From Pseudoselenomonas ruminantium (GTDB taxonomy: Bacteria; Bacillota; Negativicutes; Selenomonadales; Selenomonadaceae): 35,520 nt of DNA. The translations under genes and the position numbers were made by a program. Shown here one piece after another: positions 8,724-11,714 of this stretch. Where the stretch lies: positions 14,561 to 50,080 of the forward strand of contig NZ_FOQK01000024.1 of the NCBI RefSeq assembly GCF_900113715.1, written 5' to 3'. The notes under the pieces were generated by a model. The model saw only the letters and a list, made by a program, of their open reading frames with translations, was not told the origin of the DNA and made no database searches. Within the stretch, counting starts at the first letter, position 1. Each line of letters starts with the position of its first letter.

Positions 8724-9951
8724 TGCACAGGAATTCCTAAAGGATTTCCCCTTGCTTCATGGGGAAATCGATGGCAGGCATATCGCTTATCTCGATAATG
8801 GTGCGACGACGCAGAAGCCGCAGCAGGTGATCCAGTCGATCTGCGGCTACTATGGCGGCTGCAATGCCAACCCGCATCGCGGGGCTTATGCGCTTTCGGT
8901 CAAGGCGACAGATATCTACGAATCGGCGCGCAAGCGCACGGCACAATTCATCAAGGCGGACCGTTCCGAGGAAATCGTCTTCACGAAGAATGCCACAGAG
9001 GCGCTGAACCTGGTGGCATACAGCTATGGTCTTGCGAATGTCGGGGCTGGCGACGAAATCGTCATCAGCGTTTCGGAGCATCACAGCAACCTGGTGCCTT
9101 GGCAGTTCGTTGCCAAGACCAAGGGGGCGACGCTAAAATACATCTACCTTGAGGAAGATGGCAACCTCTCGCAGGAGGATATCGAGACGAAGATCACGGA
9201 GCGCACGAAAATCGTAGCGGTCACGCAGGTATCGAATGTCCTCGGCCTCAAGAATGATGTCAAGAGCATCGTCAAGAAAGCCCATAGTGTCGGAGCTGTC
9301 TGCATTATCGACGGCTCACAGAGCGTGGCGCATATGGCCGTCGATGTACAGGAGCTGGATTGCGACTTTTTCGCCTTCTCGGGCCATAAGATGCTCTCGC
9401 CGATGGGCATTGGCGTGCTCTATGGCAAGTACGAGATCCTTGACAAGATGGAGCCCTTCCTGCGCGGTGGCGATATGATCGAATACGTGCAGGAACAGGA
9501 ATCGACTTGGGCGGAGCTGCCGGCGAAATTCGAGGCAGGTACGCAGAACGTCGGTGGGGCGGCAGGTCTTACGGCGGCTATCGACTATCTCGAAGCAATC
9601 ACCTTCGACCGCATCGAAGCCATCGAAAAAGACCTGGTGGACTATGCTCTGCCGCAGCTCAGAGAGCTCCCCTATATCGAGCTCTACGGCTGTGACAGCA
9701 CGCGGGATAACAAGACGGGCATCATCGCGTTCAACATCAAGGATGTCCATCCCCATGATGTGGCGACAATCCTCGATAACGATGGTGTCGCTGTACGTGC
9801 GGGCCATCACTGCGCCCAGCCGCTGCATCGTTATCTCGGCCAGAATGCCAGCTGCCGTGCGAGCTTCTATCTCTACAACACGCGCGAGGATATCGACCGC
9901 TGGATAGCGGCGCTGAAAAAGGTACGGGGGGTATTAGGTTATGGCGCTTGA
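8716..9951 (+). CDS. sufS: SufS cysteine desulfurase
   Basis: PLP-dependent group II cysteine desulfurase that takes sulfur from L-cysteine and passes it, as persulfide, to SufU. The 411 aa match the usual length. The PLP lysine lies in the SGHKML motif after the DGSQSVAH segment, and the catalytic cysteine in RAGHHCAQP. The C terminus has the typical YNTREDID segment. The start overlaps sufD by 8 bases and has GGGGAGG upstream. The sufU start overlaps its end by 11 bases. Confidence 0.96.
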   Translation: MADAQEFLKDFPLLHGEIDGRHIAYLDNGATTQKPQQVIQSICGYYGGCNANPHRGAYALSVKATDIYESARKRTAQFIKADRSEEIVFTKNATEALNLVAYSYGLANVGAGDEIVISVSEHHSNLVPWQFVAKTKGATLKYIYLEEDGNLSQEDIETKITERTKIVAVTQVSNVLGLKNDVKSIVKKAHSVGAVCIIDGSQSVAHMAVDVQELDCDFFAFSGHKMLSPMGIGVLYGKYEILDKMEPFLRGGDMIEYVQEQESTWAELPAKFEAGTQNVGGAAGLTAAIDYLEAITFDRIEAIEKDLVDYALPQLRELPYIELYGCDSTRDNKTGIIAFNIKDVHPHDVATILDNDGVAVRAGHHCAQPLHRYLGQNASCRASFYLYNTREDIDRWIAALKKVRGVLGYGA

Positions 9952-10384
9952 TGACGTATATACGGAGGTACTCGGGGAGCACAGCCGCAATCCCGACCAC
10001 AAACATCACCTGAGCTGCGCGACCTGCTCGGTGAAGGGCCGCAATCCGAGCTGCGGCGATGAGATCACGCTGGAACTGCAGGTGGAGGACGGCATGGTCA
10101 AGGATGCGGCCTTCACGGGCATTGGCTGTGCGATCTCCCAGGCCAGCACGGACATCATGGCGGAGCTGATCCGCGGCAGATCCGTCGAGGAAGCCCGCGG
10201 GCTGGCGCAGAAGTTCATCAGCATGATCAAGGGTGAGATCACGGATGAAGAAGAGCTGGAGGAGCTGGATGAAGCCCTGGCGCTCAAGAATGTCTCGCAT
10301 ATGCCGGCTCGTGTCAAATGTGCGGTTTTGGCTTGGCATACGCTGGATGATGCCTTGAAATCCGGAAATAATAACAAACAGTAA
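9941..10384 (+). CDS. sufU: SufU zinc-dependent sulfurtransferase
   Basis: Acceptor of persulfide sulfur from SufS, characteristic of Firmicutes SUF systems. The 147-aa protein has the three zinc-ligand cysteine motifs NPSCGD, GIGCAIS and RVKCAVLAW. An additional CATC pair occurs just before the NPSCGD motif; related clostridial-type proteins often have a cysteine here. It is the last gene of the suf operon and overlaps sufS, followed by DnaA-box-like repeats that may also fold into a terminator. Confidence 0.95.
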   Translation: MALDDVYTEVLGEHSRNPDHKHHLSCATCSVKGRNPSCGDEITLELQVEDGMVKDAAFTGIGCAISQASTDIMAELIRGRSVEEARGLAQKFISMIKGEITDEEELEELDEALALKNVSHMPARVKCAVLAWHTLDDALKSGNNNKQ

Positions 10385-10387
10385 TAC

Positions 10388-10485
10388 TTATCCACAAAAT
10401 GTTGGGGATATCCACGGCATAACTGTGGATAAAGGCGACGTTTTGTGGATTTTTCCTGTGGATATGTGTAAATAAATGTGGATAA
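10388..10485. promoter_or_regulatory. Cluster of DnaA-box-like sequences
   Basis: Within about 100 bp there are three perfect TTATCCACA boxes: 10388-10396 (+), 10424-10432 (-) and 10477-10485 (-). There is also one single-mismatch box (10457-10465, -) and two with two mismatches (10408-10416, +; 10444-10452, -). The perfect 9-mer is the classical DnaA consensus. The cluster fills the sufU to flavoprotein gap, and its last box lies just before the Shine-Dalgarno site. DnaA control of the downstream gene, or titration of DnaA, is inference. Confidence 0.65.
10391..10454 (+). terminator. Possible terminator of suf operon built from the same repeats
   Basis: The arms 10391-10402 and 10438-10449 pair over 12 bp with one G-U, followed by five T. 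An inner 7-bp perfect pair (10409-10415 with 10425-10431) extends the hairpin. This offers a structural explanation for part of the DnaA-box cluster, though it does not explain the two outermost minus-strand boxes. Confidence 0.45.
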
Positions 10486-10502: not shown

Positions 10503-11006
10503 ATGGCAATGAAAGAAGTCAAACCAGAAGCATTCAACGAAAGCGTGTTCCAGGTAATCGGCAAGGACTGGTTGCTCGTCACTGGCGAAGCTGAGGGCAA
10601 GGCAAATGCAATGACGGCCTCATGGGGTGGCATGGGCATCATGTGGGGCAAGCCCGTGGCATATATCTTCATCCGTCCGAGCCGCTACACCAAGGAGTTC
10701 ATCGATAAGGCCGAGGGGCTGACGCTGTCAGTATTTGCGGAGGACCGCCGCAAGATGATGAGCTACTTCGGTACTGTTTCGGGCCGCGATGAGGACAAGA
10801 TTGCCAAGGCTGGACTTACCGTACGCCATGACAATGGCCGCACGTACTTTGATGAAGCGCGCGTGACGATGCTCTGCCGCAAGCTCTATGCGCAGGAGCT
10901 CAAGCAGGAGTGCTTCATCGACAAGGCTTGTGATGAGAAATGGTACAACGATGATTATCATACGATGTATATCGTCGAGATCGACAAGATCCTCGTGCAG
11001 GAGTAA
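10503..11006 (+). CDS. Flavin reductase-like FMN-binding protein
   Basis: A 167-aa cytoplasmic protein of the flavin reductase-like/flavoredoxin split-barrel family. The N-terminal part has the typical ANAMTASWGGMGIMWGKPV pattern in which Thr/Ser and backbone atoms contact FMN, followed by IRPSRYT. These proteins use NAD(P)H-derived electrons, or pass electrons in anaerobes; the partner is unknown here. The ATG at 10503 with AAGGAAGG upstream is preferred over an upstream GTG-type frame extension. The Crp/Fnr gene starts 3 bp after its stop, so the two are one unit. Confidence 0.85.
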   Translation: MAMKEVKPEAFNESVFQVIGKDWLLVTGEAEGKANAMTASWGGMGIMWGKPVAYIFIRPSRYTKEFIDKAEGLTLSVFAEDRRKMMSYFGTVSGRDEDKIAKAGLTVRHDNGRTYFDEARVTMLCRKLYAQELKQECFIDKACDEKWYNDDYHTMYIVEIDKILVQE

Positions 11007-11009
11007 GTG

Positions 11010-11714
11010 ATGGCAGCGATGGCGGAAGTGAAGGAACAGCTTATCCCTGTGCTGCAGAAATGCTCGCTGACAGATGGGATGAGCGAGGCGGAGATCCGCG
11101 AGCTGCTGAGCCTGGCGCAGGTGCGCATCAGGGATTATGCCAAGGGAGATATCGTTTTCCATGAGGGTGAAGTGCCGCACTGCATCTATATCCTGCTGGC
11201 TGGTGAGGTACATATCCTCAAGGACACGTTCTCGGGACGGCAGATCTTCCTTTCGGAAATCGCCGAGGCTGGGGATATGTTTGGCGAGGTCTACGAGGTA
11301 CTGGAACAGCCTTATGACATGTATGTTGAGGCGGTGAAGCCGACCCGTGTGCTCGAGATTGCGAGCCGGCTGCTGTCGTTTGATGCAGGCGGCGAGCTCA
11401 CGCAGAGTGCGCTTTTGGTGCAACGCAATCTCATGCGCATCTTCGCGCGCAAGGCGTACTTCATGGCTGGCAAGCTCAAGGTGCTCGCCAGTGGCAGCCT
11501 GCGTGAGAAGATCGTGCGCTTCCTGTTCCAGCACCTTGGCGGCGATGGCTGCATAGAGCTGGCAGTCAGCCGCGAATTCCTGGCGGCGTATCTGGCGGTC
11601 ACGCGGCCGTCTCTTTCCCGCGAACTTTCGGCTATGCAGCGCGAAGGGATACTGGCTGTTGATGGCAAGACCATCAAAGTCGTGGATATGGAGCGCTTTG
11701 AGGCATATCTCTGA
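11010..11714 (+). CDS. Crp/Fnr-family transcription regulator
   Basis: A 234-aa DNA-binding regulator. Residues about 20-140 form the cyclic-nucleotide-binding-like sensor barrel (GDIVFHEGEVPHCIYILLAGEV, GDMFGE), followed by a long dimer helix and a C-terminal winged helix (SREFLAAYLAVTRPSLSRELSAM). It has no N-terminal cysteine cluster, so it is not a classical Fe-S FNR, and the effector is unknown. The ATG at 11010 has AGGAG with good spacing; a GTG directly before it is less likely. Co-transcription with the flavoprotein suggests a redox or stress theme, which is inference. Confidence 0.88.
   Translation: MAAMAEVKEQLIPVLQKCSLTDGMSEAEIRELLSLAQVRIRDYAKGDIVFHEGEVPHCIYILLAGEVHILKDTFSGRQIFLSEIAEAGDMFGEVYEVLEQPYDMYVEAVKPTRVLEIASRLLSFDAGGELTQSALLVQRNLMRIFARKAYFMAGKLKVLASGSLREKIVRFLFQHLGGDGCIELAVSREFLAAYLAVTRPSLSRELSAMQREGILAVDGKTIKVVDMERFEAYL

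What the first reader, a model, noticed from the sequence alone, without database searches (positions are those of the whole stretch)
10388..10485. Cluster of three perfect and three near-perfect DnaA boxes downstream of sufU
Perfect TTATCCACA occurs three times in 98 bp, with three degenerate copies. Chance density of a 9-mer is far lower. It lies between sufU and a redox flavoprotein, with no dnaA, dnaN or gyrase gene nearby. It could regulate the flavoprotein/Crp unit by DnaA, or titrate or reactivate DnaA like datA or DARS sites. Part of it can also fold into a terminator-like hairpin, which gives a rival explanation.
Basis: partly seen in the sequence, partly recalled or inferred. Interest (0 to 1): 0.6.

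Follow-up and report, generated by a model that had tools for sequence, protein, structure and literature searches.

The report
Origin-proximal DnaA-binding cluster after sufU
A short stretch after an iron-sulfur operon in a Selenomonas-like bacterium carries a precisely spaced set of predicted binding sites for DnaA, the protein that starts chromosome copying; related genomes keep it, mostly near the replication origin where that could be measured, and it probably helps control when copying starts.

Summary
In detail: three perfect TTATCCACA (10388+, 10424-, 10477-), one 1-mismatch copy (10457-) and four 2-mismatch copies. It is one of ten groups of two or more perfect boxes within 200 bp in this genome, two of them flanking dnaA. 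The site lies behind sufU in 22 of 22 genomes of the genus. The first two boxes face each other exactly 36 bp apart in 24 of 24 relatives that carry a cluster near the flavoprotein (27 examined). Where measurable it lies 47-121 kb from dnaA in Selenomonas/Mitsuokella, and equally spaced sites lie 23-38 kb away in Anaerovibrio. It persists where the flavoprotein gene is displaced or missing, so it is not simply that gene's operator. Most degenerate copies are pairing partners of perfect ones in a long hairpin (RNA z -6.4), a possible suf terminator/attenuator. Anaerovibrio sites fold much less, and Mitsuokella lacks the T-run, yet both keep boxes. Best reading: an oriC-proximal DnaA-box cluster, like those of Bacillus subtilis, overlaid with a terminator-like hairpin. 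Titration or recharging of DnaA is open. DnaA binding was not tested.

The parts
10388..10396 (+). DnaA box 1, TTATCCACA, perfect; first of the head-to-head pair
   Evidence: identical in 20 of 20 distinct sequences (the search pattern required all but its first letter; 43 of 44 loci passed)
10424..10432 (-). DnaA box 2, perfect; starts 36 bp after box 1, facing it
   Evidence: start-to-start spacing 36 in 24 of 24 relatives with a cluster upstream of the flavoprotein, up to one mismatch per box
10477..10485 (-). DnaA box 3, perfect; near the ribosome-binding region of the flavoprotein gene
   Evidence: position and presence vary between relatives
10457..10465 (-). one-mismatch DnaA box (ATATCCACA)
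   Evidence: not present in all relatives
10403..10411 (-). weak box (2 mismatches) at +15; sits where the 16 g2/g3/g5 sites have a 7-9 of 9 box at +15/16
10408..10416 (+). weak box (2 mismatches); pairing partner of box 2 in the hairpin
10444..10452 (-). weak box (2 mismatches); pairing partner of box 1 in the hairpin; a perfect box in Mitsuokella L061, L076
10467..10475 (-). weak box (2 mismatches)
10390..10450 (+). long imperfect hairpin (terminator/attenuator-like)
   Evidence: -32.9 kcal/mol, z -6.43, 0 of 200 shuffles as good
10451..10454 (+). T-run directly after the stem
   Evidence: at least 3 T in the first 5 bases in 18 of 20 sequences; 1 of 5 in the two Mitsuokella
9941..10384 (+). 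sufU (NifU_N), upstream neighbour
10503..11006 (+). flavin-reductase-like protein, downstream neighbour (an ATG at 10476 in the same frame is possible)
11007..11714 (+). Crp-family regulator

Best explanation
The site is an oriC-proximal DnaA-box cluster, a chromosomal platform on which DnaA assembles on two convergent boxes 36 bp apart plus flanking boxes. It most likely lowers free active DnaA soon after initiation (it is duplicated early because it lies near oriC) and so helps to time initiation, as the six DnaA-box clusters of Bacillus subtilis are thought to do. In Selenomonas and Mitsuokella the same DNA also encodes a long hairpin at the end of the suf transcript. This probably ends or attenuates transcription and so keeps suf read-through from sweeping DnaA off the site. 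SHOWN here: the boxes, their fixed geometry, conservation independent of the downstream gene, proximity to dnaA in the relatives where it could be measured, and a predicted hairpin. INFERRED: DnaA occupancy, titration, termination, insulation.
For: Boxes present. The organism's DnaA has the standard box-binding domain (PF08299), and the same 9-mer clusters on both sides of dnaA. Site in 22 of 22 genus genomes behind sufU. TTATCCACA-N27-TGTGGATAA in 63 of 189 family genomes and 20 of 22 of the genus, reversed control 0. In the single-contig relative G146 all 9 groups of two or more boxes within 200 bp (2 of them at dnaA) lie within 410 kb of dnaA in a 2.83 Mb genome, this site at 121 kb. Site-dnaA distances: 121 kb G143, 82 kb G149, 47 kb G144 (with G146, 4 of the 13 genomes had both on one contig); 77 kb G041; 28, 28, 29, 23, 38 kb in Anaerovibrio-type G004, G005, G007, G015, G019 (6 of 13 genomes informative). 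Site kept without an adjacent flavoprotein. Precedents: joint deletion of six B. subtilis clusters causes early initiation (passages in PMC5295017, PMC13220808); box clusters near oriC repress untimely initiation in B. subtilis and Streptomyces (passage in PMC4585315); E. coli datA lies behind an operon whose terminator/attenuator and DnaA binding attenuate read-through (abstract of PMC10950094).
Against: No binding or phenotype data. The distance to oriC could not be measured in the window's own fragmented genome, nor in 9 of 13 and 7 of 13 relatives. Of 30 sufU loci fetched from other genera, 25 lack the cluster, 4 have it and 1 has no downstream sequence, so at this locus it is limited to a few genera. 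The strict three-box pattern has no match in the window's own genome. [quoted passage not shown] subtilis (PMC5295017), so the titration precedent itself is modest. The terminator scan did not flag the hairpin, and hairpins of similar strength occur in 2 of 10 other clusters of the genome, so convergent boxes by themselves can make such stems.
Confidence: 0.62

Rival explanations
1. DnaA regulates the downstream flavin reductase/Crp unit by binding in its 5' leader.
For: In 20 of 22 genus genomes the flavoprotein follows the site closely; box 3 sits next to the ribosome-binding region; in 7 of 16 g2/g3/g5 sites and in L066-L068 the flavoprotein is near the site, in several of these without sufU nearby.
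Against: Another gene (HAD-like, below Pfam's cut-off in L053) between site and flavoprotein in L053 and L054; no flavoprotein in L182, where the Crp gene follows; 9 of 16 g2/g3/g5 sites show no flavoprotein within the fetched locus, mostly 1.5 kb each side; no promoter-like match in the intergenic region.
Confidence: 0.14
2. It is only the suf operon's intrinsic terminator; the boxes are by-products of its inverted repeats.
For: z -6.43; the 20 distinct sequences lie 3.9 to 10.2 s.d. below shuffles; arms fit their own partner better than exchanged ones (0 of 20000 label shuffles; relatedness inflates this); covariation score 0.101 against 0.071, 1 of 500 shuffles.
Against: Box letters do not covary although paired, and the two T of box 1, outside the stem in 18 of 20 folds, are kept (selection by the search pattern noted above); the T-run is lost in L061 and L076 where the partner becomes a perfect box; g2/g3/g5 sites keep boxes with a much weaker fold, z -0.9 to -4.7; pairs changed on both sides are no more than in shuffles; RNAalifold covariation term only -0.13; terminator scan negative.
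Confidence: 0.1
3. DnaA acts on the nascent RNA or on the transcribing polymerase here (attenuator like the proposed E. coli his 'rDnaA box' case, or a DnaA roadblock).
For: Boxes lie inside a hairpin in a probably transcribed gap; precedents PMC10989985 (passages) and PMC10950094 (abstract).
Against: The his precedent is itself put forward as 'possible'; g2/g3/g5 sites have only a weak stem; nothing tested here.
Confidence: 0.07
4. A single-strand hairpin with DnaA boxes that loads the helicase (ABC-primosome type), for instance at stalled forks.
For: A hairpin holding a DnaA box suffices for DnaA-dependent DnaB loading in vitro (passages in PMC6127211); strong predicted hairpins also occur in two sister clusters, the dnaA-dnaN gap and C51.
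Against: The stem is weak in g2/g3/g5 sites and in 8 of 10 sister clusters; no evidence of ssDNA exposure. (Odds raised from 0.02.)
Confidence: 0.03
5. Chance or composition.
For: TTATCCACA outside clusters is only moderately above letter permutations.
Against: Triples by chance 0.002 per genome; fixed 36-bp spacing across genera.
Confidence: 0.01

Closest known systems
oriC-proximal DnaA-box clusters (DBCs) of Bacillus subtilis
   Same: Several clusters of DnaA boxes outside oriC and near it; box clusters on both sides of dnaA
   Different: Fixed 36-bp convergent pair, an overlaid hairpin, different host lineage and neighbour genes; no phenotype known here
E. coli DARS1/DARS2
   Same: One box opposed to the following ones; conserved spacing. 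The boxes I take as the DARS1 core (bioD-uvrB gap): + at 0, - at 14, - at 26; g2/g3/g5 sites: + at 0, - at 15/16, strong - at 36
   Different: In the window the +15 box is weak (7 of 9) and the next strong box is at 36, not 26; no IHF/Fis analysis
E. coli datA
   Same: DnaA-box cluster downstream of an operon with a terminator/attenuator, negative regulator of initiation (PMC5295017 passages, PMC10950094 abstract)
   Different: Essential datA boxes all point one way and need IHF (PMC5742627 passages); here the strongest conserved pair is convergent
Intrinsic transcription terminators
   Same: Stem followed by a T-run at the 3' end of an operon
   Different: Up to 27 pairs, AU-rich base; T-run lost in Mitsuokella; stem weak in g2/g3/g5

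Membership tests
oriC-proximal DnaA-box cluster (B. subtilis type) | several DnaA boxes clustered outside oriC | tested here: met
oriC-proximal DnaA-box cluster (B. subtilis type) | close to oriC | tested here: met
   47-121 kb in the 5 relatives with sufU site and dnaA on one contig; not measurable in the window's own genome, where dnaA is on another contig
oriC-proximal DnaA-box cluster (B. subtilis type) | bound by DnaA in vivo | not testable with these tools
   needs ChIP-seq
oriC-proximal DnaA-box cluster (B. subtilis type) | deletion of the set gives early initiation | not testable with these tools
   needs mutants
DARS | box I opposed to boxes II and III | tested here: met
   + at 10388, - at 10424 and 10477
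DARS | core spacing (measured on DARS1: 14 and 26 from box I; same in DARS2 by the review) | tested here: not met
   weak box at 15, strong boxes at 36 and 89
DARS | ADP release from DnaA | not testable with these tools
   biochemical assay
datA | essential boxes all in one direction | tested here: not met
   the conserved pair 10388/10424 is convergent
datA | IHF-binding site | not tested
   no search for IHF or HU sites was made
intrinsic terminator | stable stem followed by a T-run | tested here: inconclusive
   stem z -6.43 and T-run in 18 of 20, but the pattern scan did not report it
conserved RNA structure | compensatory changes | tested here: inconclusive
   positive but modest; covariation term -0.13; the box positions do not vary and say nothing either way

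The most novel reading that the evidence does not exclude
A family-specific DnaA-recharging (DARS-like) or DnaA-inactivating module outside the Proteobacteria: a head-to-head architecture with + at 0, - at 15/16 and - at 36/37, reused at separate chromosomal places (behind sufU or its Anaerovibrio counterpart, and the '46-bp' site of Selenomonas). In Selenomonas the sufU copy has been welded to a transcription terminator, so that iron-sulfur-operon transcription and DnaA activity are coupled.
Probability: 0.12. Interest if true: 0.75.

Novelty: new variant of a known kind. Interest (0 to 1): 0.5.

Why it matters
The control of DnaA is best known from E. coli and B. subtilis. A set of clusters with fixed geometry in a whole family gives defined, easily mutated targets to test titration against DnaA recharging. 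It may also show one short DNA under selection both as DnaA boxes and as an RNA hairpin. Two searches of the open-access library, for Selenomonas with 'DnaA box' (0 papers) and Negativicutes with 'DnaA box' (2 papers whose listings concern other subjects), found no description of such sites; subscription papers are mostly not in that library.

Tried and rejected
Flavoprotein operator as the main function: set aside on displaced or absent flavoprotein. Pure terminator: set aside on box conservation and on loss of T-run or weakening of the stem in relatives. datA membership: box direction not met. DARS membership: orientation met, spacing not met. I first looked for DARS1 between uvrB and ybhK from memory: wrong place, only one 2-mismatch copy in that gap; a primer from PMC4585315 then led to bioD and the bioD-uvrB gap. 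The idea that the many isolated boxes are a signal in themselves: weak. The 36-bp pair also marks other places (g6: between an mscS-like and an nrdG-like gene), so the pair alone does not prove orthology; and the +15/16 box reaches 7 of 9 in 0 of the 13 g6 sites. My first impression that sister clusters have no strong stem was wrong: 2 of 10 (the dnaA-dnaN gap, -27.1 kcal/mol, and C51, -30.6 kcal/mol) fold about as well as the window site (-33.5); those z-scores are the best of several windows with single-base shuffles and so are inflated.

Caveats on counts: one search examined 44 loci (window, L044-L063, L076, L154-L175) and kept 43; its search pattern asked for most letters of box 1, for GTGGAT in box 2 and for a near-fixed partner of box 1, so their invariance is partly by selection. 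The one dropped, L060, differs (ATATCCACA as box 1, still 36 bp to a perfect - box). The 43 give 20 distinct rows; 24 of 27 relatives have a cluster within 300 bp of the flavoprotein start; L053, L054 and L069 do not; L053 and L054 have it about 1.3 kb upstream. In some searches the 16 g2/g3/g5 sites (of 30 loci fetched; one, L139, was left out) were turned towards the side with more internal boxes and had perfect outer boxes by selection. The seven 46-bp sites were copied from the listing, which was cut. One search covered 37 genomes, 35 had a sufU match, 30 loci were fetched.

Full report
OBSERVATION. One search finds exactly three perfect TTATCCACA in the 35,520-base window, all between 10388 and 10485, plus one 1-mismatch copy at 10457. 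One search adds four 2-mismatch copies at 10403, 10408, 10444 and 10467. The site lies between sufU (NifU_N domain) and a flavin-reductase-like gene that is followed by a Crp-family gene. Random placement of 90 boxes in a 2.83 Mb genome gives a triple within 200 bp 0.002 times per genome. The cluster is real.

GENOME CONTEXT. The genome (3.11 Mb, 52 contigs) has 75 perfect boxes against 6 for the reversed word. Ten groups of two or more perfect boxes within 200 bp can be read from that list: the window site, two on C36 (16.1 and 19.6 kb), one on C37, five on C46 (27.4, 58.9, 60.5, 69.6, 76.1 kb) and one on C51 (31.4 kb); a looser group with one perfect box is on C15. dnaA is on C46 (DnaA with N-terminal, AAA+ and box-binding domains), between the 58.9 and 60.5 kb groups, as in a bipartite oriC (the neighbouring dnaN named by reading its sequence). 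The C37 group lies in a plasmid-like Rep_3 region. In the single-contig relative G146 (2.83 Mb) all nine groups of two or more perfect boxes within 200 bp, two of them at dnaA, lie within 410 kb of dnaA, this site at 121 kb; they hold 27 of the 90 boxes, and 60 boxes stand more than 500 bp from any other. Where dnaA and the site share a contig the distances are 121, 121, 82 and 47 kb in Selenomonas (G146, G143, G149, G144: 4 of 13 genomes) and 77 kb in G041 (genus g8). Equally spaced sites of g3 lie 28, 28, 29, 23 and 38 kb away (G004, G005, G007, G015, G019; with G041, 6 of 13 genomes informative). In G146 and G143 the site is on the dnaN side of dnaA, in G144 and G149 on the other side, which suggests that nearness outlived an inversion.

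CONSERVATION. SufU is present in 22 of 22 genomes of the genus, and all 22 carry the site behind it; 20 of 22 have the exact TTATCCACA-N27-TGTGGATAA, the other two one mismatch in box 2. Among 27 flavoprotein relatives from named genomes, 24 have a cluster within 300 bp of the start codon and in 24 of 24 a + box is followed at exactly 36 bp by a - box (up to one mismatch each). Family-wide the 36-bp pair occurs in 63 of 189 genomes with 0 for the reversed control. Of 30 sufU loci fetched from other genera, 4 have the cluster (G041, G040, G002, G184), 25 do not and one (L192) has no sequence downstream. So at sufU it belongs to a few genera of the family.

NEIGHBOURS CHANGE, THE SITE STAYS. In Selenomonas ruminantium HD4 and S137 (L053, L054) another gene, HAD-like but below Pfam's cut-off, lies between the site and the flavoprotein (only the L053 copy was scanned). 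In G184 (L182) there is no flavoprotein and the Crp gene follows. In 16 sites of g2, g3 and g5, 7 have the flavoprotein within the fetched locus and 9 do not; several lie beside an aminopeptidase-like or transporter-like gene instead (names from reading the sequences). This argues for a chromosomal locus rather than the operator of one gene. The counter-evidence is that the flavoprotein stays near the site in several genomes without sufU nearby (L066-L068, L129, L132, L134, L137, L140).

GEOMETRY. In g2/g3/g5 a second - box (at least 7 of 9 letters) sits at +15 or +16 in 16 of 16 sites; in the genus/Mitsuokella set a weak one (7 of 9) sits at +15 in 19 of 20; seven '46-bp' sites elsewhere in Selenomonas have it at +16 with the outer box at +37; the 13 g6 sites do not have it. 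A pattern for this three-box order is found in 31 of 380 genomes of the class, all 31 within the window's family (189 genomes), none in the other 191, and none in the window's own genome, whose +15 box is too weak; reversed control 0. The boxes of the E. coli bioD-uvrB gap, which I take as the DARS1 core, are + at 0, - at 14, - at 26; the review PMC5742627 (passages and one section read) says that box I opposed to II and III with constant spacing is the common feature of DARS1 and DARS2. The resemblance is in orientation; the spacing differs.

THE HAIRPIN. 10390-10450 folds at -32.9 kcal/mol, z -6.43. The 20 distinct sequences all fold at -24.7 to -41.7 kcal/mol, z -3.9 to -10.2. Box 1 pairs with the weak copy at 10444 and box 2 with the one at 10408, which explains two of the degenerate copies; the one at 10403 overlaps the latter through the GGATATCC palindrome. 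Support for selection on pairing is moderate. Arms of the same sequence fit better than exchanged arms (mean -32.8 against -29.9, 0 of 20000 shuffles). The covariation score is 0.101 against 0.071 (1 of 500) and 90.4% of cells pair (shuffled 89.0%, 4 of 500), but pairs changed on both sides number 3, no more than in shuffles (450 of 500 reach this), and the RNAalifold covariation term is only -0.13. The sequences are related, which inflates these tests. Box letters do not vary, including the two T of box 1 that lie outside the stem in 18 of 20 folds, with the selection caveat told under Tried and rejected. A T-run follows the stem in 18 of 20; in the two Mitsuokella sequences it is replaced by the end of a perfect DnaA box. 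The 16 g2/g3/g5 sites fold much less (z -0.9 to -4.7). Of ten other clusters in the genome, two (the dnaA-dnaN gap and C51) have windows that fold about as strongly as this one, so strong stems are not unique to this site and convergent boxes can produce them. The simple terminator scan did not report the hairpin, and no promoter-like site was seen in the gap. I read the hairpin as a secondary addition in the Selenomonas/Mitsuokella branch, probably a suf terminator or attenuator, laid over a DnaA site; this order of events is inference.

MECHANISM. B. subtilis has six DnaA-box clusters outside oriC whose joint deletion causes early initiation (passages in PMC5295017 and PMC13220808; the original paper is not held), although one of these reviews also says that clusters with significant regulatory roles have not been identified there. 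E. coli and Salmonella accumulate boxes towards oriC, a layout said to favour titration (PMC12371093, abstract and one introduction passage). The E. coli datA locus lies behind a tRNA operon whose terminator/attenuator and DnaA binding limit read-through into it (PMC10950094, abstract). By analogy I infer that this cluster sequesters or inactivates DnaA after its early duplication and that the hairpin shields it from suf transcription. Binding, direction of the effect on initiation, and termination are all untested.

VERDICT. A real, conserved DnaA-box cluster, oriC-proximal where that could be measured, with an unusual fixed geometry and an overlaid hairpin: a new variant of a known kind of site.

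Noticed in passing
G000:C36:16114-16147 (L034:8115-8148): A triad + at 0, - at 13, - at 25 of perfect boxes, close to the E. coli DARS1 spacing (0, 14, 26); G150 has the same spacing.
   Followed up: partly
L040:9461-9504 (G000:C15); L141-L153: DnaA boxes between an mscS-like gene and an nrdG-like gene; in genus g6 this place holds a 36-bp pair around a CCTAGG-type palindrome. Gene names by reading the sequence.
   Followed up: partly
L036:9593-9636 (G000:C37): Tandem DnaA boxes beside short direct repeats and a Rep_3 initiator gene: a likely plasmid origin.
   Followed up: partly
L033:6195-7416 (G000:C46): Two perfect boxes upstream of an FtsZ-family gene, about 16 kb from dnaA.
   Followed up: partly
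L032:8879-8956 and L035:9838-9915: Two other DnaA-box clusters (dnaA-dnaN gap; C51 next to panC/panD-like genes, named by reading) also fold into strong predicted hairpins (-27.1 and -30.6 kcal/mol).
   Followed up: partly
G146:C1: Isolated TTATCCACA are strand-polar: 50 of 60 have TGTGGATAA on the leading strand, against 66% for letter permutations in a 400 kb sample (binomial P 0.0025).
   Followed up: partly
G000:C22:109076-109555 and C11:153476-153946: Two further matches to the DnaA-type ATPase domain, open frames of 348 and 288 aa (the second match with one TAG inside), not examined.
   Followed up: no
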